From the NCBI GenBank assembly GCA_031763025.1, contig JASSKH010000037.1:3038001-3102000 (forward strand): a stretch of 64,000 nucleotides of DNA, given 5' to 3'. The notes beneath the pieces are model-generated. The model searched no databases. It worked only from the letters and a program-made list of their open reading frames with translations, and had not been told where the DNA came from. Position numbers and translations under genes: made by a program. Of the stretch, positions 3,023 to 64,000 are shown piece by piece (position 1 is the stretch's first letter; the number at the start of each line of letters is the position of its first letter). This DNA comes from Macrocystis pyrifera. Lineage: Eukaryota > Sar > Phaeophyceae > Laminariales > Laminariaceae.

Positions 3023-4075
3023 CGGATCGCCACAGCGTTGGCAGCAGCAGCATAGCAACGATATGAAAAGAATGGAGAAAAAAAAGTATATACCCCGAGG
3101 CCGTCCGAAAAGTATTTTTGGTACCTCACTATAGACCCACCTCCGCATGCTGTACGGCAACAACGCAGCAGCAGCATAGCAACAATACGAAATACAAGAA
3201 AAAGTAGTACGTACGCAAAATGCAGGAGCAAAACGACCAAAATATTTTTTTTTTCGTATAAAAAAAGCCATTTGGGTACAAAAATGGCCAATAAAAACAA
3301 TAATCCGCGTTGGCAGCAGCAGCATCGTAGCAACGATATGAACATAAAGAAGAAGAAATATATATACCCTGGTATGCAGCAATCGCAAAATCTACGGAAT
3401 TTCATTGACGATACCGCAATATGTACACACACAAGTGCAGCATGATGTACGGCAACAACGCAGCAGCACCACAGCAGCAGCATAGCAACGATATATATGA
3501 AAATAACCAAGCCAAAAACGAGAAATTGCAGTACGCACGCAAAATGCAGGAGCAAAACGACCAAAATATTTTTTCACGTATCAAAAGGAACCATTTGGGT
3601 ACAAAAACGACCAAGAAAAACAGTAACCCGAGTACATACGAACATTCAGTGGATATTGCGGCAGCATTAGCAGCAGCAGCAGCAGCAGCAGCTATAGCAT
3701 TGGCAGCAGTAGAAGCTGCAACGAATCGCCGCAGCGTTGGCAGCAGCAGCAGCAGCAGCATATCAACGATATGAAAATAAGGAAGAAAAAAAGCGTGACA
3801 TGTACCCTGGTATGCCGCCAACGCAAAACCTACGGAATTGACGATCCGAAAATATGTACGCTTCCAGCATGATGCACGGCAACAACGCAGCAGCGCTACA
3901 TACAGCAGCAGCAATTGCAAAGGAGCAGCAGGTGCACAGCACGGCAACAACGCAGCAGCACTACAGCAGCAGCGAGTGCACAGGAGAAGCAGGTGCACAG
4001 CAGCAGCAGCACTCATGGCGTTGCGCTGACAGCAGCAGCACCAGCAGCAGCGGCAGCCGAAAACGAGCAAAATGA
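2625..4075. repeat. CAG composite tandem repeat
   Basis: The block repeats several modules. GATGTACGGCAACAACGCAG occurs near 2773, 2884, 3149, 3445 and, slightly changed, near 3870 and 3943. GACGATACAGAAATATGTAC-like occurs near 2708, 2818, 3408 and 3840. A GCAAAATGCAGGAGCAAAAC module occurs near 3218 and 3540, and an ATATGAAAATAAGGAAGAAA-like module near 3060, 3340 and 3770. The modules are joined by (CAG)n tracts, the longest about 12 units at 2987-3021. Open frames made of Ala, Gln, Cys or Leu runs on either strand are products of the CAG tracts and are not called as genes. The block lies where introns of the putative minus-strand gene would be. Confidence 0.75.
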
Positions 4076-5050
4076 GTAGGTGGGGTCACCAAAACATGTA
4101 CACACAGAAATCGTGTGCATGCACCGAAAATGCACCACAGTAGCAGCAGCACTCACGTCGTTCGGTGCAGCGGTGTCGGCGACAGCTGAATCCTCCGTTC
4201 CTTCGTTCACGTCCCGCAAACAGTTGTGCATGTGCGCGTTCGCGTGCACTGTGTGTAAGAGGAGCCGACGCAACGCACGAAGGGGAAAGAACGAGCATGG
4301 ATGAGTCAAAAAAAATAAACGCTTTGACGTAGGTTTGTATGCCAAAAGGCAATTGAAAACCCCAAAAAAACGTACTGGCAACATACAGCATGCACAATAG
4401 ACATAAGACACTCACCACTGTCAGCAGTCTCGAGGGAGTACGAGACAGTCCCTTCCTTGATCGGGCGAGCACATAACTCGCAGTCGGTTGCCCTGTCAGG
4501 ATGATCCCGCCACCACGCACGTGAGATCCTTGCAGGTGGCGAAGGCCACGTTTTTGCCACCAGGCGCGGAGTTCTTGACCAAGTGCTGGTCCGTGCACTG
4601 GTCGCAAACAACAGCCGGCACCAGGTCGGTCTTTGTCGTTGCCGCTCTCTTGCCAGAGGGCGAGGACCACGCGCCTCTCGACGAGGGGGAGGTGGTGTGG
4701 AGAAGGGAGAGGCGGGGGTTGCAGCACCAGCAGGTTCGCCACCGACAGCAGCAGCTTGGCCGCCGACAGCTGCACCTATCTATGCCGTTCGTCGAAGGCG
4801 AGACGCCTCTTTTAGGCGTCGTGCGAAGAGCTGTCTATTGGTTGGCAGTTTGCGGAAGAAGAAAGAAGAAAGGTTGTTTGGCTGTTTGGCGAAGAAGAAA
4901 GAAGAAAGGTTGTTTGTTGTTTGGCTGTTCGGCTGTTTCAAAGAAGAAGGGCTGTTTGCGAAGAGCTGTCTATCAGTCGGTCTGTCTGCCAAGAGCTAGC
5001 AAGTGACAACGACCCCAAAAATCGTAATTATAGTTGTGTTTATATATTGA
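3950..5050 (-). repeat. Inverted duplication, left copy
   Basis: This segment matches 62950-64000 in the opposite orientation over its whole length, to the window edge. The match includes the Cys-rich exon candidate, its donor site and the VNTR of a C/T-rich unit (GCCAAACAACCTTTCTTC-like on the minus strand, about 36 bases) at about 4850-4935. This copy has about two VNTR units and the other has about three. It also holds some 75 bases near 4140-4215 that the other copy lacks. Identity is high by eye. Homology fades at about 5050, where the sequence becomes AT-rich. The partner runs off the right edge, so the true length is unknown. Confidence 0.85.
4409..4790 (-). pseudogene. Cys-rich finger exon candidate, left copy
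   Basis: On the minus strand this GC-rich segment has an Ala/Gly/Pro-rich lead followed by paired cysteines: C-D-Q-C-T, A-T-C-x4-C and, in another frame, D-C-E-L-C-A-R-P-I-K-E-G-T. It ends at a strong donor (GACAGTG|GTGAGT) at about 4409. The CxxC-x2-IKEG part resembles the start of the finger at 2421-2516, so it may be an upstream exon of the same gene. The cysteine pairs are not in one uninterrupted frame here. The inverted copy at 63.25-63.63 kb also changes frame at this point, with a different length. Either there is an unrecognised small intron or both copies have decayed. I do not recognise a named family. Confidence 0.4.
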
Positions 5051-46012: not shown

Positions 46013-46567
46013 TATTGGAGATGTTACTTGACAGTAGCTATCATTTTGTCGTCACTGGATACCACGGAATATCTGGTAGTATACGGTACAAGGGATCCAT
46101 AATAGATCGATTTTGGGTGTGTCACCACCTGACGAACGTTGTCATAGACCGTAGTCGGGTACGGGTGTGCCATCACCTGACGAACGTTATCATAGGCCGT
46201 AATCGGATTCGGGTGTGTCATCACCTGACGAACGTCGTCGTAGGAGGTATATGTATCTGTTATGTATCTGTTAAAGATCATCAAGATCGGAAACAGCCAA
46301 GAGGAGCGTTTGCACGCCCACTTGTTCACTCTACTTTTGCTCATCATCATCAGCTTGTCTGCTGAGCTTAATAACTAATCAACCTTGGCCTGGAGTCGCC
46401 AACATCATCATCTTTCTTCTATTCGAAGATTTCACGCGAGTCTGCCTAACAGCAACTCAAGCGTTTGCACCTCGATCAGTTCTGTGTCTTGACCGGTCAT
46501 CGGCAAGCGAGACTAAGCGTACACCAGCTTCGAGCTGATACACGCTACTTCACACCAACCCTCAATA
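46013..46567 (+). repeat. 5' LTR of the Copia element
   Basis: 555 bases. It holds three diverged internal repeats of CATCACCTGACGAACGTTGT (46128, 46170, 46212), probably a U3-region feature. The same three are in the 3' LTR. Confidence 0.9.
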
Positions 46568-46581
46568 GGTTATGAGCCTCG
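46568..46581 (+). other. Half-tRNA primer-binding site
   Basis: GGTTATGAGCCTCG directly follows the 5' LTR. Its complement contains GGCTCATAACC, the anticodon arm (CAU) of initiator methionine tRNA. Copia of Drosophila and yeast Ty5 prime from a cleaved initiator tRNA half in this way. Confidence 0.75.
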
Positions 46582-51583: not shown

Positions 51584-52139
51584 TATTGGAGATGTTACTT
51601 GACAGTAGCTATCATTTTTGTCGTCACTGGATACCACGGAATATCTGGTAGTATACGGTACAAGGGATCCATAATAGATCGATTTTGGGTGTGTCATCAC
51701 CTGACGAACGTTGTCATAGACCGTAGTCGGGTACGGGTGTGCCATCACCTGACGAATGTTGTCATAGGCCGTAATCGGATTCGGGTGTGTCATCACCTGA
51801 CGAACGTCGTCGTAGGAGGTATATGTATCTGTTACGTATCTGTTAAAGATCATCAAGATCGGAAACAGCCAAGAGGAGCGTTTGCACGCCCACTTGTTCA
51901 CTCTACTTTTGCTCATCATCATCAGCTTATCTGCTGAGCTTAATAACAAATCAACCTTGGCCTGGAGTCGCCAACATCATCATCTTTCTTCTATTCGAAG
52001 ATTTCACGCGAGTCTGCCTAACAGCAACTCAAGCGTTTGCACCTCGATCAGTTCTGTGTCTTGACCGGTCATCGGCAGGCGAGACTAACCGTACACCAGC
52101 TTCGAGCTGATACACGCTACTTCACACCAATCCTCAAAA
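51584..52139 (+). repeat. 3' LTR of the Copia element
   Basis: 556 bases, about 98 percent like the 5' LTR. Its right tip is followed by GAATT at 52140-52144. Confidence 0.9.
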
Positions 52140-52333
52140 GAATTCACTCCTTGGATCTCATGCGGTAGGTACATCATGTACAACTGATTATCCTTGGAAC
52201 TCATGTAAGTACATTACGTACACAAGTGTTTGTTCCCAATAGCAACATCACCACTTGATGTTGCATGTGTTTCTTTTGGAGAAATTTTAGCATGTAACGC
52301 AGAGTAAGAAAGTGTATGCTTAACGGCAGGAGG

Positions 52334-52640
52334 TATTAGGGATGATACTTGTCAGTAGCCATCATAGTCGTTCCTCGATAACACTTGCGTCATCTGGTAT
52401 ACATTTACGCATTTCTAAGTACCACGGACAGTTTTCCAATTCTGTTCAGCTACTAAATAGTGCCAGCATGCTGCATTTTTTTTTTCCCGACTCGACCTGC
52501 ACATTTTCTTTACGGGTACTCTTATTTGTATCCCAACGAAAGGTCTTGCACTGCCCACGCTCTGTAATCGTCACGCCCTGCTATCATTACGAACATTGGG
52601 CATTTCAGACGGAGTTCTGTTCAATTCTGTTCAACTGATA
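52334..52640. repeat. LTR-like fragment near the gypsy element
   Basis: It starts TATTAGGGATGATACTTGTCAGTAGCCATCAT, which tracks the first 35 bases of the Copia LTR, then departs. It may be a related LTR or solo-LTR remnant. I could not link it to an LTR on the far side of the element at 52.9-60.6 kb. Confidence 0.3.
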
Positions 52641-52925
52641 TCACTTGAGTGACCCCGGCGCGACTACCGTCAATCAAACGCGAGGCGCCTGACGCTAGAT
52701 AGATGCCCTCAACTATAAAAATATCCTTCGACGGGCAATAAAATCGAGGCACGCACAACCTCAACACCCCCTATCGTACGTCTTTACCGTCACTCCTTTC
52801 TCTCTCCTAGATCGGTTTGTTGGTATTGTAGCCGCCTACCCTGATCCAAGCCTGGATCCACCCACCCTCTCCATCTTCCACCAAACCTTTTCCCGTCCCA
52901 GTACAAGCGTTCCACCCGCCTAAAC

Positions 52926-54073
52926 ATGGCCGAGAAGGCTTCCTCCATCAACATTCCCGGCGCCCACTCCCCCGAGGCCACCAACCCCCGCGAGGCGAGG
53001 TATGCCGCAAGGGCCTTTCGCGCTACCGACGACGACACCCCTGGCTTCGAAACCATTCTGAACGACTTCACGATACACCCCACCACACCGGGATCTTCTC
53101 CAATGGGAGCAGGCACGACCAGTGCCGGGCCTACCATCAACCCGGAGGTCTCTGCACAGGAAACCTCCACCCTGGCTCTCAATCCGGGGCGTTACCAAGG
53201 CGATCCCACGGCCCTCCGTAAGCGCCGTGCGGCCCTCAAAACCCACCACGAGCAGCTCCTCCTTATCGCGAAAGAGGGCGCTGACCTCCTACTCGTGTTA
53301 CCACCGTCCCCCTCCCCTTCCTCGAACCCTTTCGACTCCACCTATGGGACTACAGCTGCGACCGCGGCCACCACGGCCCAATCGCAGCCGTTCGCTCCTC
53401 ACCATGGGCACCCTATACGTCCGCCGCGATGTCTAGGACCACCACCTCCCAGCCTCCCAAAAACCAAACTGGGACCACAATGTCCCAGGCACCACTACCG
53501 GCCCAACCCTTGCCAGCCCCCATACCCACTGGGCACCGGCACCCGCAGACGTTCGGCTTTGAGCCCAATGACTGGGTCTTCCTCGACGCTAAGCTCCGCT
53601 GGATGCAGAGTACACGCGACGCGACGGCCTCGGATGTCTCGCTAGAAGCACACCGTGTATGGCGGCTGTTCACACCTGACTGTAACCCGTCGATCACCTT
53701 CGTTCTGGCCCGCGCCGCCACTGAGGGTGTTTCTTCCGAGCTCATCGGGGCCGCCCATACCCGTTTACTCGAGCCACGGTATTTTCACTCGAACGCCGGC
53801 CGCGGCTACGTGTGGAACCCAACCGTCTCGATCCGCTCCCCCGACACCCCCAACCACCCACCCCACGACGGACACGCCATCGCCGGCGACACCGCTCCTT
53901 CCCACCTCGACAGCGCCCCCTACGACGACAGCGCCCCGCTCCTCACGAGCGCGCAGCCTGATGACGAAAGCCAACACGGAGCCCACGACGGAGGTGGAAC
54001 GTCGTGGTGTCCCACGCCCAAGCCCTACGAGCTCACGGTGCCCACTGCCCCAACTGCAATGGCACGGACATAG
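52926..54073 (+). pseudogene. Gypsy-like gag region
   Basis: The first part starts MAEKASSINIPGAHSPEA and is Pro/Thr/Ser-rich, with a helical stretch around LRKRRAALKTHHEQLLLI. A more conserved-looking block follows (FGFEPNDWVFLDAKLRWM ... EAHRVWRLF ... LEPRYFHSNAGRGYVW). A C-P-N-C zinc-knuckle trace lies near 54050. The region is assigned to gag by position and composition. I do not recognise a named Gag family. Confidence 0.55.
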
Positions 54074-54129
54074 TATCAAGACCTGCCCCCTGCGCTTCGC
54101 AACACGTTCGGCATCCTCAGCCCGGTAGT

Positions 54130-54440
54130 CGGACACGCCTACCGCCAATGGCAGCAGATGATGCTCTTATATCGCCGTGGACACTACGAGCACAACCTGG
54201 AGCGAAACTCCAACCGCTACGACAACGACAACCGTCGAGGCAACAACAACAACCGCAGCGCAAACTACAACAGCAACCGCTCCAACTAGAACCACTCCCG
54301 CAACTACCGCGGAAACAACGGGCGCTCCGACAACTGGCGCCACAACAACGGCCGGTCATACGACAACGGCAACCGACAGTCGCCAGGGCAACAGTTACAT
54401 CGACAACGCACCGAGCCTGCCCCCTCGTCTTCAGCATTGA
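54130..54440 (+). pseudogene. Asn/Arg-rich tail of gag
   Basis: The plus strand encodes an Asn/Arg/Tyr/Gly-rich, low-complexity stretch (NRYDNDNRRGNNNNRS and similar), as in RNA-binding tails of Gag proteins. The Gln-rich and Thr-rich reads in the other frames are composition shadows. Confidence 0.5.
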
Positions 54441-55218
54441 CGGTGCATAGCCCCACGACCAATACTTCCGCACCTGCCGCCCCCGCGAACATGCGGATGG
54501 GCAGCACCAACTCGAAGTACCCAGCCGAACCAACGGCAGCCGGGCACCTTCCGCACCAACGGACAAGCCGATGGTGGAGCAACTGTCGCATCTCCACCAA
54601 CAGCATCTACTGCGAGCACCCGAGGTTCCCAGGGCGCACGAGTAAATCACGTGCACCACGCCTACCCGACCCCTGCCCCCCAATGCCCCCCCCCCCCTAC
54701 CCCAGCCCATTTCACAGCCACTTGTTCAAGCACTGATCATCTTGCCCAAGTGATTGCCTTGAGGTGTGGGCGGGAGGAGGCCAAGACGCCGAGCCCCACC
54801 GGGATGCTCCACTCGACGTCTTCAGGTGGTGAGCAACGCTGCTTGCCGACTATTGCCGAGACCCCAGACATTGCTACCCTGGGAAACGTCTCGACGATTA
54901 CGGCTACCAGCGGTTCCGGTTCACACGAAACTGCTGTTTCGTCTACCGGGCCATCGCCCCCTGAGCCTGCCTCATATTGGCCGCTCCATACGCGCATGTT
55001 CCAGCATGCGCGCATTTCTTGTGACAGCGTTGAACCCGCGAACGACGGGCTTCCTCCAGCTGCCACGGTGTTGACACCACCGCTGTCCCTGAGCCTCGAG
55101 GGACAGTCCCGTTTTAAATACGGAAGACTCGCGACCAACGTCGACCGGGGTCTGCCCTGAGCCCCCTGACCCGTCCTCCTCGCCAGCTTCGCGCAAAGCG
55201 TGGACACGGACCCCAGGT
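54441..55218 (+). other. Element interior, part not recognised
   Basis: C-rich sequence inside the gypsy-like element, between the gag tail and the long 795-codon frame. Pro/Ser/Thr-rich reads run in more than one frame. No domain is recognised. Confidence 0.45.
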
Positions 55219-57606
55219 GTGGCATCCCCTAGCGAGTATGCCCCTGTTCTCCAAAAGTTGGACGATAGGGCGCTTGAGGGTCGTCCCGCCCGGCTTATAA
55301 GCCCCGGCGACGACTGCCCCGGTACCTCGGCTTTTGCCGAGCAATTCCGCGCGAACACGAGGGTTCCGGTCAGCACCGCTCGATCGTTGCTGACTCTACC
55401 TCCGTCGACGCCCGGCGGCGATAGGAAAGATTATCGTCGCCCCCCACCCCCAACACAAAAGACGCCATCAACTGCACACGTCACCGCAGAGGCCGCCTCA
55501 TCGCAATTCCCCGGAAACACGAGGGTTCCGGTCAGCACCGCTCGATCGTTGCTGACTCTACCTCCGTCGACGCCAGGCGGCGATAGGAAAGATTATCGTC
55601 GCCCCCCACCCCCAACACAAAAGACGCCATCAACTGCACACGTCACCGCAGAGGCCGCCTCATCGCAATTCCCCGGAAACACGAGGGTTCCGGTCAGCAC
55701 CGCTCGATCGTTGCTGACTCTACCTCCGTCGACGCCAGGCGGCGATAGGAAAGATTATCGTCGCCCCCCACCCCCAACACAAAAGACGCCATCAACTGCA
55801 CACGTCACCGCAGAGGCCGCCTCATCTTTCCACTTCTTCTGGGACTCCTCTTCGGTCTTTTCGCAGTGTTACCTGTGCGACATCGAACACGATGGCGTCA
55901 CATACAACTGTACTGAGCAGATGATGATGGCGCAGAAGGCCGCGCTCTTCGGGGACATCACAACTGAGCGCCGCATCAAAGCGACCCGCGACCCGGCCCA
56001 CCAAAAAGCACTTGGGCGAACCGTTTCCGACTTCGACGAAATGGTCTGGGAGCGACACCGCTACACCATCGTCCTCTACATTAACTTCTCAAAGTTCCGC
56101 CAACACCCGGAGTTACGGGAGGAGCTAATAGCAACCGGCGACAAGCACATCGCCGAGGCCAGCCCACACGACCTCATCTGGGGCATAGGCTTCAAGGCCG
56201 ACCATCCGGACGCCTGTGACCCGACGCGTTGGCGTGGTCGGAATCTGCTGGGCAGGATACTGATGGACGTTCGAGAAAACCTCGGCGCCAATCGCTCCGC
56301 CCAGCCTCCATTTCCTCCCTATCTTCACGACCAGGAGCCAACACCCGCCCCCACCGACTCCACCCGGGTCTCCCCCACAGCCGACGGCATCCACGAAACA
56401 AGCCCAACCCCTCCATGGCAACCGCCTACCTCTCCACTTGGGCCACTCCTACCGCCGTCTACCCCCGACGCCTACCCGAGCAGCCACTTTGCCCAAGGGT
56501 CCACCATCAACACCGCAGCCCACAGCCACCTCCCTACCCGCCGCCCGCCGATACCGGAACACGGACCATGCGGCATCATTACCGTCGACGACGCGTCGTT
56601 CACGACGAAAGTACCCGTGCACAGCGGCCCCACCGCCACTACGCGCCGCGAACTCGTGGCACTGCTCGATACCGGCTCGCCCCAGTCGTTTATCACCGCA
56701 ACCGCGGTGGAACAACTGAAGGCTTCCCAGGCAGCCACCGATGCGTGCGAACGACACAATTCCCCCCGTTCATGGGGAGGTTTCGGCACTTCAGCCCCCC
56801 TCTCCACCTCCGTCTCCATCCGCTTAAGCATCCAGTTTATGCGCCTCCAGTCCCCCACCGCTGCCCTGGCAGTATGGGCCTGCGTAGTTCCTGCAGGAAC
56901 CATGCAGCACCCCATCCTTCTGGGACGAGACAGCTGGATGCGCTTCGAGCAACGCTCGTATACCACGCTCCAGCAACAGCCCACCCCCCCCTACCAACCT
57001 CCCCGGCGAACCCGCGGTGAGCTCTCCTTGAACCACCATGACCCCAACGGAGCCTCAGCATTCATTCCCGACGATCGTTCCACTGACGACGTATACCCCC
57101 TCCGATTCGCCGGCAAAAAAGCTATTTCGCTTTCCTCCACCCTGCAAGCTCGTCAAGGTCAACCTGGCGCGTCAGTCAGGCGCTCCAGCATTTACCGGGA
57201 ACTACATGGTGAACATGCTCCCCCCCGAGAACCCCCTTTCCGACCCGGCCATTTTCGTCTCCGACGAATACCAAACGGTCCCACTATCTGGATCTACCGA
57301 TCTCGAGCCGGGCGACTTCCTCGGAACCTCCTGCTCCCCACTGGTACAGGTACCACGTTCCACCCTTGGTCACCCTTCCTTGGCCCCTCCCCATCCTCCT
57401 CCGATTCCGGATGTACATGCCCTCCACGACAACATCCCCGTGGCCGACCAGAGCCCATCGACAGACGACTCTCCTACCGCACCAACAGCCCCGTGCCCAC
57501 AACTTCTTGCACGCCCCAACGCCGACCAACGGGAAAGCTTCCTCGACCTCTGGGAACGTCTGCCGACACACCTATGCGACGTCAACTTCGACCTGCACGG
57601 TTCTAG
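55219..57606 (+). pseudogene. Polyprotein part: repeats, NADAR, protease
   Basis: A 795-codon open stretch. Residues 46-203 hold three near-identical Pro-rich repeats. Residues 204-356 form a NADAR (YbiA-like, former DUF1768) domain, with C-T-E-Q-M-M-M-A-Q-K-A-A-L-F-G-D, then LIWGIGF, then WRGRNLLGRILMDVR. A Pro-rich linker follows, then an aspartic protease with L-V-A-L-L-D-T-G-S-P-Q-S-F at about residues 480-491 and a second flap/core region (L-L-G-R-D-S-W-M). NADAR proteins hydrolyse N-glycosidic bonds in riboflavin-pathway intermediates or remove ADP-ribose from DNA guanine. Its role in an LTR element is unknown. Confidence 0.8.
55354..55827 (+). repeat. Three 162-base in-frame repeats
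   Basis: Units start at 55354, 55516 and 55678 (AACACGAGGGTTCCGGTCAG), 162 bases or 54 residues each. The third is cut short where the NADAR domain begins. The units are almost identical, so the expansion is recent compared with the age implied by the rest of the element. The protein repeat is Thr/Pro-rich (STARSLLTLPPSTPGGDRKD). Confidence 0.95.
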
Positions 57607-57619
57607 ATGAACCCCGTCG

Positions 57620-58876
57620 ATGATCAACAACCTGGGAGACGTCCTCTGCGAATTCCAGGACGTCTTCTCCACAACCAAGACTGACTTCGGCTCGTGCCCG
57701 CTCATGCCGTCCAAGATCACCGTACCCCCGGACAGCCCAACGGCTCGAGCTCCTTTCAGCGTACACCTACACGTTGGAGTACCGGAAGGGCACGGCCAAC
57801 GGCAATGCCGACTTCCTCTCCCGGCTTCCCCAACCAACCACCGACGCCGACCGCACCGGACGCAACCGCCGCACTGGCCCCGACACCGTCGGCATCTACC
57901 TCATCCGCCCCTGCAGCTTCGCGCCGAACGACCCTTCCACTCCGGGTATCGGCTTGGGTGGGCTCGTGTCCCCCCCTTCCAGACCCATCCCCACCGTCCA
58001 GCCGCCCCCCTTCACCGACGACGACTTCCGCGACTTTCGCCTACTCGGACCACGTATGGAGCACCACACCCTTTCCCCCGCAACCCAAACCTTCATCGGG
58101 CCTATTGCGACCCGCGACTCCACCACCGTACAGCTTGCCGGCACCGAGAATGCCGCCGTGAACACCGGAGCTCCTCCAGGCTCGGCTTCCATGCCGTCCG
58201 TCGTCTCTCCGCCGCCCACCATTGGCGCCACGACACCAGCCCTTCCAGGTCTGATATCTTCTCGGACCCGCCATCGCGTCGCCGCTGCCGCGGGAACCCC
58301 CGGCCTACAGCCGACTACCGGTTTGGACGCCGACCGCCACCCAAGCCATTGGCGCCCACTACGCAAAGATCGACCCCCCTCAACAACGCCCTCTCCGCCG
58401 GCACCAACACCGCCGGTAGTGCCCCTTCTTGAGCCCGTCGTCGAATCCGATGACAACCCCTACCTCCTCGCCTACGTCGAGCACTACACCTACAAAGCCT
58501 GGGCGCGAGAAAACCGCGCGGAGCCCCTGTGCTGCGCCACCATCCGCCGCCTGTCGTTGGACTCCCCCAGCCCCACGCCGCACGACCTCCTGGACTTCAT
58601 CCCCCCGGCCCGGCGCCCACAACTTTCAGACGTCCTCACTCTTGCCTCCAAAAGCAAGCTACACCGACGACGAAACCACCCTCCTGGTCCAACGACCACC
58701 CACAACCTCATCCGGGAACAGCCTACCACCTCCCGCCCCCTCTACCCCACGCGTCTACGTGCCAATGTTAATGCGCCCTTGGGTGCTGAACACATGCTAC
58801 ACCTGGGAGTGACCCGAACGGTCCGCATGTTGGCACGTTTCTTTTGGTGGATTGACATGGACGCTTCCGTCCGCTG
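57620..58876 (+). pseudogene. Gypsy pol: RT-start and RNase H-end parts
   Basis: The region opens with L-C-E-F-Q-D-V-F-S-T-T-K-T-D-F-G, the typical segment before a Ty3/gypsy reverse transcriptase. It includes LEYRKGTANGNADFLSRLP, the characteristic end of the RNase H domain (x-Y-x-x-G-x-x-N-x-x-A-D-x-L-S-R). Beyond it lies a Pro-rich connection to the integrase zinc-binding part (H-M-L-H-L-G-V-T-R-T ... F-F-W-W-I-D-M, then C-x2-C near 58890). The fossil is broken and not all expected parts are recognised. Confidence 0.7.
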
Positions 58877-60628
58877 GTGGGTCTGCGGTTGCCTTCAATG
58901 CCAGGTGCGGAAGACCTCTCGGCACACCATTCGTTGGCCCATCCTTTCTCTTCCTTCGCCCAACGGGCCTGGCATCACCGTCAGCGTCGACTACGTCGGG
59001 CCCCTGCCGTCCACATCCTCCTCTTCACAGACCGCTTCAGCCGCCGCGCCGATATGTATGCCGTTTCAGCGGCGCAGCTCACGGCCGCCGGCACTGCCGA
59101 CATCTTTCTGAACGAGTACATCCCTCTCTGGGGGTGCCCGGTTACACTTCTCTCCGACAACGGAATACACTTCACCTACAAACTTGTGAACATCGTCTAC
59201 GAATGCCTTGACGTTCACAAGGTCAACACCAGCTCCTACCACCCCTGCACCAACGGCGGCGTCGAGCGCGTCAACCACGTGCTGGCCCACATGCTCTCTA
59301 TAGTTGGCAACGAACAGCAGACCGACTGGGACGTGCTGCTCCCACACGTGTCGTCGGCCTACAACAATTCCGTGAACGCCGCCACAGGGCTTGCACCTAA
59401 CGAAATCCACATGGGCCGCCTTCCTCGCCTCCCGCTCTCGGTCTTCGAACCCGACAACATCGGCGGTCACCAACGCTTGGACCGCGATCACCTGGTTTAC
59501 ATCAACCTCGCCACCGATCGACAACGACGCGCCTATTCCCTCGTCCGCGAACTACACCGACTCACCGTCTCGCGTCTTCAGCGCCGCAATGCGCCCATCA
59601 TGGCCGCCCTCCTAGCACCCCCCCCCTTCACCGTAGGCGGCTGGGTTTGGGTCTACAACTCCGCCTCAACCATCAACCAAGGCGTCAAAAAGGGCACCGA
59701 CGCAACCGTCCTCAAGACGAAGCTTTCCCTGAACTGGAATGGCCCCTTCAAGGTCCTCGCCGCAGGGCCGACGCCCGCCTCAAACACCCCCGACAATCGC
59801 CCCCTTCACGACAAGCTACTTTTCCTCGACCTTCCATCCGACCTCCCGGGACGGGACTCCAAGCCACGCGTCTCTGTCCAACGATGCAAACTTTGCCGGA
59901 ACCCCGACGACACAGCGACATCCCCAAGCATCTGCCTGCGGACCTTACTACATACGTGCTCACAGCTTCTGCCGCCAAGTCCCCACCTTACCACGTCACC
60001 GTCGACGACGTCACTCTTCCACCGGAACGCCTCGAGGTCGAGCAGATCACTGGCCATCAACTCGTACGCGGCCGCGGCGGGGTCATCGCCGTTCTGTACG
60101 AGACTCACTGGACTGGACTTCTCAGCCCCTCTTGGGAACGCGAGCTGGACCTTCAACACTTCCGGCGCCACATCCTACTGTACTGGTCACGATCACCAAC
60201 CCAACACCGCCAGACGAACCGCCTCTACCGCCAGATGCGCATCGGCGCCGCTCACCGCGAACTGGCACGATCTGAAGGACAAATCTTCCTCGCCCCAGGC
60301 TACGCCTTGGTCTCCCGCCGCCTTTGGCTCCACAACTTCAGTACCACCATCCTGCCCTCCGGAGCACACATATGGTACAAGGCGCGCGACGGCCTTTGGT
60401 GGCTGGGCAAGGTCGCTCACAGCTCACCCCCTGACGCCTCTTCGGGAACTCCGCCGGAGCCTTCACCGGGAAGCTCCTACATCGTCCGGTTCCTGGACGA
60501 CCCCGGCCCGATCAAGATCGACCTCCAGCCCGCGCGCTACACTACAGCATGGAACGCCGTATACGGATCGTGGTGTCTTCAACGCCTGGGAATGGAACCC
60601 TAGCACGTGGGGTGCTGTGGAACTCTGA
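58877..60628 (+). pseudogene. Gypsy integrase core region
   Basis: DDE integrase core of Ty3/gypsy type. It shows F-T-D-R-F-S-R-R-A-D-M-Y at about 59023, V-T-L-L-S-D-N-G-I-H-F-T at about 59146-59181 and Y-H-P-C-T-N-G-G-V-E-R-V-N at about 59240-59278. These carry the three acidic sites. The downstream T-G-L-A-P-N-E-I-H-M-G segment is typical of gypsy integrases. The integrase would insert element DNA into the host genome. Confidence 0.85.
59647..60603 (+). pseudogene. Chromodomain-like and Tudor-like integrase tail
   Basis: The frame ending at 60603 contains R-L-E-V-E-Q-I-T-G-H-Q-L and Y-E-T-H-W-T-G-L-L-S-P-S-W-E-R-E-L, which fits a chromodomain (x-V-E-x-I-L ... Y-x-V-x-W-x-G ... W-E). Chromoviruses use such a domain to target insertion to marked chromatin. 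Further on, IWYKARDGLWWLGKV and YIVRFLDDPGPIKI look like an SH3/Tudor-fold reader. Both are inferred from pattern only. Confidence 0.55.
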
Positions 60629-60640
60629 TGTGTCCCGCGG

Positions 60641-62529
60641 AACCCCCACCGTTTCCACTCCCCCCCCAGGTTAGCCTTAGTTTAGTATTTTGTTGGTTCT
60701 GGGTATTTGGTTCTGGTTATTCTGCAATATCTTAAGCGTAGTTCTTCAGGGTTAGTCTTCAATAGTCGTCAGCAGTCATCTTCTTGGGAGTGTTTGTTTC
60801 CATCTACCGCCACCGGTATCGCTTGACCGACCCCGTGTTGGCTACCGATCCGAGGCCGTGTATGTTTGTTTTTTGGGTGTGTTTGGGAGTATCATCGTCC
60901 CCCCCCCCCCCCGTTTGTTTTTCTTCTTATCGCCCACGGCTCCGTGTAACCTCCTTACGTTCAGGTCACTGACTCGTAGCGATACCTTCATTTGCATTTA
61001 TGTTTGTACTCCACTAGCCTACAGCCCATTATCGGCGATATCACGCCGAGGCAAAATCGTGTTGAAGCCTGAGCTGTACTCTGACCTTAGTCGACTTCCG
61101 CCGACCTGTGTTTCAGACGGTCCTCGAGCTAAGACTATATCGAGCTTCCAGCTCACCCGTGTTTCTTCCATGTTTGACAAGTAGGGTCCCGATAGCATTG
61201 GCGCCCCGGAAGGTCGCTGAGTTATCGGCCATACATAAGCGGTTCGGACATGATCGATTTCTCCTGACCTGTGTCCAGCTTTTTGTCTGTTTTCTGGTCC
61301 CGATGGTACTTCGTTTCTCTTTCCCTTTTCTTCCTCTTTTCTTCTTGTTCGGTATTCCGCACACCCCTCTGTCCTCTGGCAAACGACACTACGTTTGATC
61401 TGTCGCCCCGGTTGACCGAGTTGCACACGCTAGTGTTTGGGCCCCGCGCTATCTACTAATTCGAACTGCACGCATTAGGTCGATTTTCTTGCGGATTTTC
61501 TTGCCGCCACCGTCTTTGAGTTTGTTTTTGTTGAGTTGGCTACGTTGCTACGTTTGCTGGTTTTGTTCACACCACGAACAGGTCTCCGAGACGCCGCGTT
61601 GTTTGTTGCGTCTCTCGGTTTTAGTAGTCCCTAGTGCACGCAGCCCTCATAGCACTCTAGCTGTGTCTCTTCTGTCTCGCGTGATGTCTACCTTGTTAGG
61701 ACCTTCGCCACAAGACAAAGCATGGAACCTAGCGGATATATAAATATATGTCTTTGAATTGTGATCACTGTCTCCTTTTTAGAGTTTCCTCGTTCGCCAA
61801 CCCGGTTCAGCGAACAACCCTTTCGTACCTCCTTGGGCCCCAGACAATGACCCCAGTACTACGCTTGTACGTCCTTCTTTTTCCTTCACTTCGGTCTTCG
61901 TTTTCTTCTTCAGCCTTCGCTTCGGTTTCTGTCTCCTTTTGCGTTCTTCTTTCTTTGTTTTCATTTTGGGTGATTTTTCCTTTCGCCTTTGCTTTGAGTT
62001 CTGTCTCTCTCTCTCCTTGAGTCTCCTTTTCAGTGGTTGTTCTCAGCGAACACCCCCTCGTCGTAGTATTTGGGTCTTATTACGAGGTGTGGGGGGATCT
62101 ATAGCCTCATTTCGTTTGTTTCGAATAGCCGCATCTTAGACCACCTTTTTCCTTGCCGTTTGGGATGAACTTTGTCATCACCCTCCGACCATCTTGTGGT
62201 CTGCATATACGACTATTCAGGGTGGGCTAGTGTGATATGGTTGGATTATTCATGAGCTATAGATATAGATAATACGTTGCAGTCTTGTAGTCTCACGAAT
62301 ACGAGAATAGTCCAAAGAATGGATTAACCCAGCGGATATTCCGTTAGTCGAGAGTAACGTTCTCTTAGGAATGTTCCTAGAGCGGAAAACCCCTTAGATG
62401 AGAGTAATGTTCCTTGACGCAGATAGGACTACCAAGTGAGAAGTTCTTATATTAGCAGAGGAACGACCGGTAGCCATAGGAAAGTTCTGTAGGCGTACAT
62501 CAGACAAGAGGAATTTAGGAGAGCTTGTG
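60641..62529. other. T-rich region, no gene recognised
   Basis: The plus strand is T-rich with CTTC/TTTC runs (61300-61360, 61870-62030) and a 14-base C-run at 60899-60912. It may contain the 3' untranslated end or LTR of the preceding element, but I could not match it to anything upstream. Two related boxes (TTCAGCGAACAACCC near 61806 and CTCAGCGAACACCCC near 62043) may mark an internal duplication. A GAGAGTAACGTTC / GAGAGTAATGTTCC pair lies near 62350 and 62400. Confidence 0.35.
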
Positions 62530-62533
62530 GCGT

Positions 62534-62575
62534 GGGGTGGGACGAGTATATCTGGGCGACGAGTCCCACCCCCCC
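62534..62575. other. Short perfect-arm hairpin
   Basis: GGGGTGGGACGAG...GACGAGTCCCACCCC gives a hairpin with a 10-base stem around a loop of about 18 bases. The function is unknown. Confidence 0.6.
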
Positions 62576-62764
62576 TACCTCTCACTTCTCTACCAGAGCA
62601 CCTCCTCAGCTCTCGCCATCAATAAGAAGATCTAAATCAGAAGAAGCGAAGCGCTGTTTTCCAGCTGCCAGAACCACCTGCGTCCCTTACCACTACCCTT
62701 ACCACTACCCTAGAGCGGCCTCCGCTTCATAGTACCCTATTATATACCTGGTATTTGTTTTTAC

Positions 62765-62953
62765 TAATGATCCCACACTAATTCCGCGAACAGTATTATA
62801 GTTTGTGCTCAAAAATATGTTGTGTGTGTTCTTCACGTTAAAATGATGGGTGGATGCAGGTGCTACTTCTAAACAAGTGTGCAGGGTTTCGTACGAGTAT
62901 TATTTCGCTCTTGCGCTACTCCGGCACCTCCCGGAGGGGAACCTTGTATATAT
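62765..62953. repeat. 190-base dispersed repeat, copy 2
   Basis: Same family and orientation as 40398-40590. It abuts the inverted duplication that begins at about 62950. Confidence 0.75.
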
Positions 62954-64000
62954 AATAAATACAACTATAATTACGTTTTTTGAGGTCGTTGTCACTTGCT
63001 AGCTCTTGGCAGACAGACCGACTGATAGACAGCTCTTCGCAAACAGCCCTTCTTCTTTGAAACAGCCGAACAGCCAAACAACCTTTCTTCCTTCTTTGAA
63101 ACAGCCGAACAGCCAAACAACCTTTCTTTCTTCTTTCTTCTTCGCCAAACAGCCAAACAACCTTTCTTCTTTCTTCTTCCGCAAACTGCCAACCAATAGA
63201 CAGCTCTTCGCACGACGCCTAAATAAGGCGTCTCGCCTTCGACGAACGGCATAGATAGGTGCAGCTGTCGGCGGCCAAGCTGCTGCCGTCGGTGGCGAAC
63301 CTGCTGGTGCTGCAACCCCCGCTTCTCCCTTCTCCACGCCCCCTAAGCTCACCTCCCCCTCGTCGAGAGGCGCGTGGTCCTCTCCCTCTGGCAAGAGAGC
63401 GGCAACGACAAAGACCGACCTGGTGCCGGCTGGTGTTTGCGACCAGTGCACGGACCAGCACTTGGTCAAGAACTCCGCGCCTGGTGGCAAAAACGTGGCC
63501 TTCGCCACCTGCGAGGATCTCACGTGCGCTGGTGGCGGGATCATCCTGACAGGGCAACCGACTGCGAGTTCTGTGCTCGCCAGATCAAGGAAGGGACTGT
63601 CTCGTACCCCCTCGAGACTGCTGACAGTGGTGAGTGTCTTATGTCTATTGTGCATGCTGTATGTTGCCAGTACGTTTTTTCGGGGTTTTCAATTGCCTTT
63701 TTGCATACAAACCTACGTCAAAGCGTTTATTTTCTTTTTTTACTCATCCATGCTCGTTCTTTCCCCTTCGTGCGTTGGGTCGGCTCCTCTTACACACAAT
63801 GCACGCGAACGCGAACATGTACAACTGTTTGCGGGATGTGAAGCACACGATTTCTGTGTGTACATGTTTTGGTGAACCCACGTACCCATTTTGCTCGTTT
63901 TCGGCTGACGCTGCTGCTGGTGCTGTCAGCGCCACGCCATGAGTGCTACTGCTGCTGCTGTGCACCTGCTTCTCCTGTGCACTCGCTGCTGCTGTAGTGC
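62950..64000 (+). repeat. Inverted duplication, right copy
   Basis: Reverse complement of about 3950-5050. The VNTR at 63060-63190 has about three units (two on the left side). The end of the window matches the (CAG)-rich stretch at 3955-4010, so the homology probably goes on outside the window. Confidence 0.85.
63250..63630 (+). pseudogene. Cys-rich finger exon candidate, right copy
   Basis: The paralogue of 4409-4790. One frame reads an Ala/Gly/Pro-rich lead, then SSPSGKRAATTKTDLV and C-D-Q-C-T-D-Q-H-L-V, then A-T-C-E-D-L-T-C. The D-C-E-F-C-A-R-Q-I-K-E-G-T-V part is in another frame and runs to the donor GACAGTG|GTGAGT at about 63622-63636. The CDQC pair, ATC..C pair and CEFC pair could bind two zinc ions. 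The family is not recognised. Any further exons lie outside the window. Confidence 0.4.

What the first reader, a model, noticed from the sequence alone, without database searches (positions are those of the whole stretch)
55828..56285. NADAR domain inside a Ty3/gypsy-like polyprotein
A well-preserved NADAR (YbiA-like) domain lies in one open frame between gag-like sequence and an aspartic protease. Seen: the C-T-E-Q-M-M-M-A-Q-K-A core, LIWGIGF and WRGRNLLGRILMDVR. Known: NADAR proteins are N-glycosidases acting on riboflavin intermediates or removing ADP-ribose from guanine in DNA, where they counter DarT-type toxins. Inferred: the element captured it, possibly to undo host ADP-ribosylation of its nucleic acid or to affect the NAD/ADP-ribose response to infection. 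I know of no established function for NADAR in LTR elements.
Basis: partly seen in the sequence, partly recalled or inferred. Interest (0 to 1): 0.87.

Follow-up and report, generated by a model that had tools for sequence, protein, structure and literature searches.

The report
NADAR-carrying Ty3/gypsy retrotransposon family
A jumping gene in what is probably a brown alga carries an enzyme domain that in other proteins removes ADP-ribose from DNA and RNA; the same kind of element was already described in 2025 in the alga Ectocarpus.

Summary
Window 55828-56285 encodes a complete YbiA-type NADAR (Pfam E 1.2e-47) in one 837-aa frame before an aspartic-protease-like region. Its model matches the ADP-ribose-bound NADAR 8bau, and eight pocket residues are all present. 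It is no one-off: 150 of 150 scored matches in the same 537-Mb genome pass the cut-off (1264 candidates). All 20 loci fetched have NADAR then protease, 19 of 20 also RT. There are two NADAR types, about 50% identical. The window copy is type B and belongs to an amplified subfamily sharing one RT deletion (11 of 20 close copies tested; 9 of 20 have RT). Constraint is clear between types (pN 0.34, pS 0.73), weaker within them.

Such a Gypsy lineage is already in print for Ectocarpus (PMC12477816), so this is a new member of a known kind. Added here: the RT-less subfamily, pocket and selection data, and a tree hinting at two NADAR origins (single-clade AU p 0.037). Best reading, inferred: a Pol-borne hydrolase that removes ADP-ribose from element RNA or cDNA. 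The host as a brown alga is inferred.

The parts
52439..62729 (+). Extent of the element as shared with other genomic copies; 3' end shared by several copies, 5' end possibly a truncation; no LTR pair found
53285..54073 (+). gag-like stretch, one of several overlapping frames (52845-54736)
   Evidence: 91% over 178 aa to L023; no Pfam hit; called gag by position and by the knuckle motif
54040..54095 (+). Two halves of a CX2CX4HX4C zinc-knuckle-like motif, lying in two frames in this copy
   Evidence: my reading; the motif is in one frame in 11 of 20 fetched loci and not in one frame in the window
55093..57606 (+). Open frame of 837 aa: linker, triple repeat, NADAR, linker, aspartic-protease-like region
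55341..55826 (+). Three in-frame tandem copies of 162 bp (98%) just before NADAR
55828..56285 (+). NADAR (YbiA-type) domain
56560..57030 (+). Aspartic-protease-like region (DTGSPQSF, ILLGRD)
   Evidence: motifs; 46-64% aa pieces in type A loci, 92.5% in L023; Pfam sub-threshold
57743..57759 (+). Joint of the deletion that removed RT and most of RNase H
57759..57836 (+). Remaining RNase H C-terminal tail
58794..58916 (+). Integrase zinc-binding H2C2 domain
   Evidence: E 1.3e-11
59009..59188 (+). Integrase core (rve), sub-threshold, in another frame
   Evidence: E 0.011; L023 E 4.8e-5, also below cut-off
60034..60189 (+). Weak chromodomain-like stretch at the C-terminus
   Evidence: E 0.084 (below cut-off); L028 E 0.01 (below cut-off)

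Best explanation
The feature is the NADAR domain at the N-terminus of Pol of a Ty3/gypsy retrotransposon family with two NADAR types, A and B; the window holds a decayed, RT-less type B copy (shown). The domain is most likely a working ADP-ribosyl hydrolase: fold, all eight ADP-ribose-contacting or catalytic residues and long-term purifying selection are kept (shown); activity is inferred. Most likely mechanism (inferred): it is made as part of Gag-Pol, freed or left attached by the protease, carried in the particle with the RNA, RT and integrase, and removes ADP-ribose from guanine in the element's RNA and/or cDNA, so that a host or microbial ADP-ribosyltransferase cannot block reverse transcription or integration. 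The RT-less subfamily would spread with RT supplied by RT-bearing copies (inferred).
For: Domain and fold. Residues E43, K50, R79, W89, R93, E125, D130, W133 of P. nicotianae NADAR (named in PMC11543638 passages) map to identical letters in the window. All eight are kept in 56 of 61 genomic copies (42 B, 19 A), while L028 and the window are identical at 76 of 150 positions. Selection: A-B pN 0.344, pS 0.733, 798 pairs; within A pooled pN/pS 0.42 against PR 0.52, RT 0.39, RH 0.44; B 0.545 over 41 copies. Order: 20 of 20 loci NADAR-protease; one 1696-aa open frame in L028 holds NADAR, RVT_1 and RNase H. The type A copy in L025 has 279-bp LTRs, 98.6% alike, with CATA on both sides. Spread: 16 of the 239 collected database proteins run from NADAR into A- or B-type polyprotein flanks. 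Activity in the family: all NADARs tested in PMC11833690 reversed guanosine-ADPr on RNA (passages), and NADARs do so on DNA (PMC11543638, PMC11125620, passages).
Against: No assay, expression, particle data or known guanine ADP-ribosyltransferase in the host. The substrate cannot be read from sequence: TIGR02464 names the riboflavin-intermediate activity. Constraint on changes shared by two or more A copies is weaker in NADAR (w 0.41) than in PR (0.35), RT (0.24) or RH (0.16), on small counts; in 21 DNA-picked B copies the shared changes are 2 synonymous and 5 nonsynonymous. RT-bearing B copies give pN/pS 0.87, at pS 0.009 only. All 19 A copies were chosen by NADAR score, which favours conserved NADARs and probably explains the low singleton ratio there (0.47 against PR 0.90, RH 1.01). 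Five of 61 copies lost a key residue. The open frame in L028 belongs to a copy that matches L025 only from 2110 on, and no terminal repeat pair was found for it.
Confidence: 0.45

Rival explanations
1. The domain acts on soluble NAD/ADP-ribose derivatives (host alarm signals or by-products of RNA processing) rather than on the element's nucleic acid.
For: Proposed for viral, above all phage, NADARs in PMC9503650 (passages); the ADP-ribose pocket is conserved.
Against: The same paper favours macromolecular targets for polyprotein NADARs of eukaryotic RNA viruses; a fusion to Pol would deliver the domain to the particle rather than the cytosol (inference).
Confidence: 0.2
2. The domain is kept for a structural or nucleic-acid-binding role in Gag-Pol, with the catalytic pocket no longer used.
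For: Constraint within types is modest; position next to Gag.
Against: Eight of eight pocket residues are kept in both types although the domain is only about 50% identical.
Confidence: 0.17
3. It is a riboflavin-intermediate N-glycosidase carried along for a metabolic benefit.
For: TIGR02464 passes its cut-off in both types.
Against: No riboflavin-pathway domain was hit in the seven window ORFs scanned; NADARs also act on G-ADPr, E. coli YbiA among them.
Confidence: 0.06
4. Neutral passenger that merely has not decayed yet.
For: Within-type pN/pS of 0.4-0.9; in 21 DNA-picked B copies the shared changes are 2 synonymous, 5 nonsynonymous.
Against: A-B pN 0.34 against saturated pS, eight of eight pocket residues kept; both types and other sources keep it.
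Confidence: 0.08
5. Chance juxtaposition of a NADAR gene and a separate gypsy insertion.
For: None found.
Against: NADAR-protease order in 20 of 20 fetched loci, 19 of 20 with RT.
Confidence: 0.01

Closest known systems
NADAR-bearing Gypsy lineage of Ectocarpus (e.g. Gypsy-12_Ec32), PMC12477816
   Different: Another, 537-Mb genome (the paper's is 200.2 Mb); two NADAR types; an RT-less amplified subfamily, which the passages I read do not mention.
Tx1 LINE ORF1 of Crassostrea gigas with NADAR (PMC12477816)
   Same: NADAR in a retrotransposon protein
   Different: LINE, ORF1 rather than Pol; known to me only from that paper's sentence
Polyprotein NADARs of positive-strand RNA viruses (PMC9503650, passages)
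   Same: Domain embedded in a polyprotein with the polymerase
   Different: Viruses, not LTR elements; sequences not compared here
P. nicotianae NADAR (8bau) and E. coli YbiA (2b3w)
   Same: Fold; pocket residues (checked against 8bau)
   Different: Stand-alone proteins; 31% and 29% identity
NADAR proteins of brown algae without a matched polyprotein flank (P0136, P0170 Ectocarpus; P0188 Pylaiella; P0201 Scytosiphon; P0163 eukprot, unnamed species)
   Same: 55-61% identity to type A NADAR; grouped with it (90/69)
   Different: No polyprotein flank matched; four of the five (not P0163) have a Cys/His-rich N-terminus
dUTPase of betaretroviruses (recalled, no call)
   Same: A nucleic-acid-sanitising enzyme in the slot just before protease
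   Different: Unrelated enzyme; works-like comparison only

Membership tests
NADAR superfamily, YbiA type | Match to PF08719 over its length | tested here: met
   162.6 bits, positions 1-162 of 163
NADAR superfamily, YbiA type | YbiA fold | tested here: met
   TM 0.88 and 0.80 (by query length) to 8bau and 2b3w
NADAR superfamily, YbiA type | Glutamate (not Asp/His) at the last-strand catalytic position, plus E43, K50 | tested here: met
   E114, E34, K41 in the 157-aa numbering; criterion
NADAR superfamily, YbiA type | ADP-ribosyl-guanine hydrolysis | not testable with these tools
   bench assay
DarT-NADAR toxin-antitoxin | Asp-type (BC4488) NADAR next to DarT | tested here: not met
   Glu at that position; no DarT among the Pfam hits of the seven window ORFs scanned
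Ty3/gypsy LTR retrotransposon | PR-RT-RH-IN order | tested here: met
   Family level: 19 of 20 loci have PR, RT and RH in that order, and an rve-region match follows in 15 of those 19. The window copy itself has no RT
Ty3/gypsy LTR retrotransposon | LTRs with short target duplication | tested here: inconclusive
   Met in one of two type A copies examined; no LTR pair found for type B or the window copy
Ectocarpus NADAR-Gypsy lineage | RT phylogeny within that lineage | not tested
   Ectocarpus consensus sequences not held
Ectocarpus NADAR-Gypsy lineage | NADAR at N-terminus of Pol and chromodomain at its C-terminus | tested here: inconclusive
   NADAR position met; chromodomain only E 0.084 and 0.01, below cut-off

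The most novel reading that the evidence does not exclude
The slot before the protease in this gypsy family was filled with a NADAR at least twice, or its NADAR was replaced: type A has one allied to brown-algal proteins and to a myxobacterial/planctomycete-like set, type B one from a different, presumably bacterial, group. The repeated filling means that removing ADP-ribose from retroelement RNA or cDNA is a recurring need, which would point to an undiscovered ADP-ribosyltransferase-based restriction of retroelements in brown algae. The RT-less subfamily is a parasite of the family that still carries the hydrolase.
Probability: 0.25. Interest if true: 0.78.

Novelty: new member of a known kind. 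Interest (0 to 1): 0.5.

Why it matters
If the domain works, it would be, as far as I know, the first demonstrated case of an LTR retrotransposon carrying its own nucleic-acid de-ADP-ribosylase. That would imply that ADP-ribosylation of nucleic acid limits retrotransposons in these hosts. The first part is directly testable with a purified domain and the published G-ADPr oligo assays.

Tried and rejected
Rejected: a separate-insertion chimera; a one-copy curiosity; the reading that the window copy lost RT on its own, since the joint is shared. Led nowhere: relatives in viral contigs with the window domain alone (none confirmed of 3 stretches); with alignment A1 541 stretches encode relatives, 80 kept, not used further; long proteins with the domain (2 hits, neither with retroelement domains); LTR pair for type B. 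An early reading that 52439 is the true 5' end was shaken: L171 and L177 match each other upstream of it, but both are on contig C200 and may be a local duplication. Not answered: whether the genome has a stand-alone NADAR gene (query P0136). An earlier count gave 12 of 20 for the knuckle motif; on recount it is 11 of 20.

Full report
What is there. The ORF 55093-57606 (837 aa) holds a complete NADAR domain (PF08719, E 1.2e-47) after three in-frame 162-bp repeats and before an aspartic-protease-like region. The domain as it stands folds with pLDDT 97.9; its two significant matches among solved structures are the ADP-ribose complex 8bau (TM 0.88 by query length) and E. coli YbiA 2b3w (0.80). 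The eight residues that PMC11543638 names as contacting ADP-ribose or catalytic (passages) all fall on the same letter in the window. The catalytic position holds Glu, which marks the YbiA type.

State of this copy. After the protease the sequence jumps to the last part of RNase H (57759-57836); no RT was found. The H2C2 domain is significant (E 1.3e-11); the integrase core and chromodomain are below cut-off and lie in other frames. The gag region is in several frames, with the halves of a zinc-knuckle motif in two of them (my reading). The window copy matches other copies from 52439 to 62729. No LTR pair was found.

The family. The genome is 537 Mb in 223 contigs; 150 of 150 scored NADAR matches pass the cut-off, out of 1264 first-look candidates. 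I fetched 20 of the 150, about 9.8 kb each (L015 8.75 kb), nearly all from the top of the score list. All 20 have NADAR then protease. In 19 of 20 (type A, NADAR about 50% identical to the window) RT and RNase H matches follow; they are displaced or broken in L020, L022, L024 and L027, RT is shorter in L019, and some RNase H matches are partial. A match to the rve-region query is present in 16 of 20, L023 among them; L019, L020, L021 and L022 show none within the stretch fetched. L028 has one 1696-aa frame with NADAR, RVT_1 (4.3e-25) and RNase H (8e-31), but matches L025 only from 2110 on. Of two type A copies examined for ends, one has 279-bp LTRs, 98.6% identical, beginning TGTTAAGAT and ending ATCTTAACA, flanked by CATA on both sides; in the other no terminal repeat pair was found. 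A CX2CX4HX4C knuckle lies in one frame in 11 of 20 loci.

The RT-less subfamily. The window NADAR has 40 scored nucleotide matches including itself, the other 39 shown at 98% (233 candidates). I fetched the stretch about 1.7-2.3 kb beyond the start of NADAR in 20 such copies; for 19 of them the NADAR was fetched too. In 11 of 20 the sequence runs across the window's deletion joint; in 9 of 20 it stops at 57725-57743 and continues into RT, with main matches of 75-83% to the type A RT and two short pieces at 56% and 66%. L023 also has the deletion. A 301-bp query across the joint matched over its full length in 40 of 40 scored places, the window included (605 candidates). So the deletion is inherited and amplified, while RT-bearing type B copies coexist.

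Selection. Between types A and B, NADAR pN is 0.344 and pS 0.733, which is saturated (798 pairs). Within type A (19 copies, all chosen by NADAR score) pooled pN/pS is 0.42 for NADAR, 0.52 for PR, 0.39 for RT, 0.44 for RH (17 copies). For type B: 0.53 in 12 RT-less copies, 0.87 in 9 RT-bearing copies where pS is only 0.009, 0.52 in 20 score-picked copies, 0.545 in all 41 counted (L122, which has a frame break, was left out). Of 42 B copies read, L150 and L155 have a stop and L122 a frame break. Changes shared by two or more A copies give w 0.41 for NADAR, 0.35 PR, 0.24 RT, 0.16 RH; singletons 0.47, 0.90, 0.59 and 1.01. For all 42 B copies: shared 0.41, singletons 0.58; for the 21 DNA-picked B copies shared 0.71 on 7 changes, singletons 0.32 on 19. 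Constraint is thus clear over the long term, weak and noisy within recent bursts, and weaker than on RT and RH. All eight pocket residues are kept in 56 of 61 copies; the exceptions are four B copies at E43 and one A copy at K50.

Relatives and origin. The protein search with the window domain gave 317 hits (120 listed), with type A 3202 (120 listed). Eukaryotic hits among those listed for type A are Ectocarpus, Pylaiella and Scytosiphon proteins and one from eukprot. Of the 239 collected proteins 16 extend into A- or B-type polyprotein flanks; all 16 are from the source 'ena' and unnamed, so that they come from other species is an inference from their divergence. Of my 45 'bacterial' rows 16 bear a bacterial name; the rest are unnamed as to organism. 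Holding all element and 'ena' rows together is rejected weakly (AU p 0.037); adding the brown-algal rows it is not (p 0.090); holding brown-algal and type B rows together gives p 0.035. Without eight rows (four long-branched, four decayed-looking 'ena' rows) type B lies in a starred set with 20 'bacterial' rows (100/98), and the first two tests give p 0.0365 and 0.075. The groups were partly named after seeing the tree, so the p-values are soft. The host as a brown alga is an inference from these hits and from the Ectocarpus paper; the stand-alone gene could not be sought in this genome because the genome search did not complete.

Literature. PMC12477816 (passages; [quoted passage not shown] it guesses at processing of the RNA intermediate. 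Searches 'NADAR + retrotransposon' (104 papers, 25 listed), 'DUF1768 + gypsy' (9, none), 'NADAR domain + LTR' (10, that paper only), 'YbiA + retrotransposon' (37, that paper only), 'NADAR + transposable element + polyprotein' (38, 2), 'NADAR + brown alga' (103, 80 papers, 8 listed) and 'NADAR + LINE + Tx1' (104, 2) listed no other paper whose title or abstract start bears on it.

How it most likely works. Fold, pocket and long-term constraint point to an active hydrolase (shown to the extent of sequence and model). NADARs tested so far remove ADP-ribose from guanosine in RNA (PMC11833690, passages) and guanine in DNA. A Pol-borne copy would be packaged with the RNA and act before or during reverse transcription (inferred). 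This is like the recalled placement of dUTPase before protease in betaretroviruses. Against: no assay, and the same fold also serves riboflavin-intermediate cleavage (TIGR02464).

Noticed in passing
window 46013-46568 and 51584-52140: Direct repeats of about 557 bp, 98% identical, 5.6 kb apart: probably LTRs of a second element just upstream (copia-like by my ORF reading, not tested).
   Followed up: no
window 62690-62729; L170, L172, L178, L180: The type B 3' end lies at the same place in several copies and ends in one or two units of TACCACTACCCT in the window, L170 and L172, where I read it; no LTR pair could be found for type B. Odd for a gypsy element and unexplained.
   Followed up: partly
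window 62950-64000 against 3958-5047: Inverted repeat pair of about 1 kb, 91-92% identical, at the two sides of the window.
   Followed up: no
P0136, P0170, P0188, P0201, P0163: NADAR proteins of brown algae without a polyprotein flank (one, P0163, from eukprot, species not named); four of five have a Cys/His-rich N-terminus, for which Pfam gave no hit. Possible source or kin of the type A domain.
   Followed up: partly
P0001, P0002: NADAR together with PF10021 in an unnamed protein, and with ferric-reductase domains in a Grifola frondosa protein.
   Followed up: no
window 55341-55826: Three 98% identical in-frame 162-bp repeats directly before NADAR; L023 has one unit there, so the number varies between copies.
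   Followed up: partly
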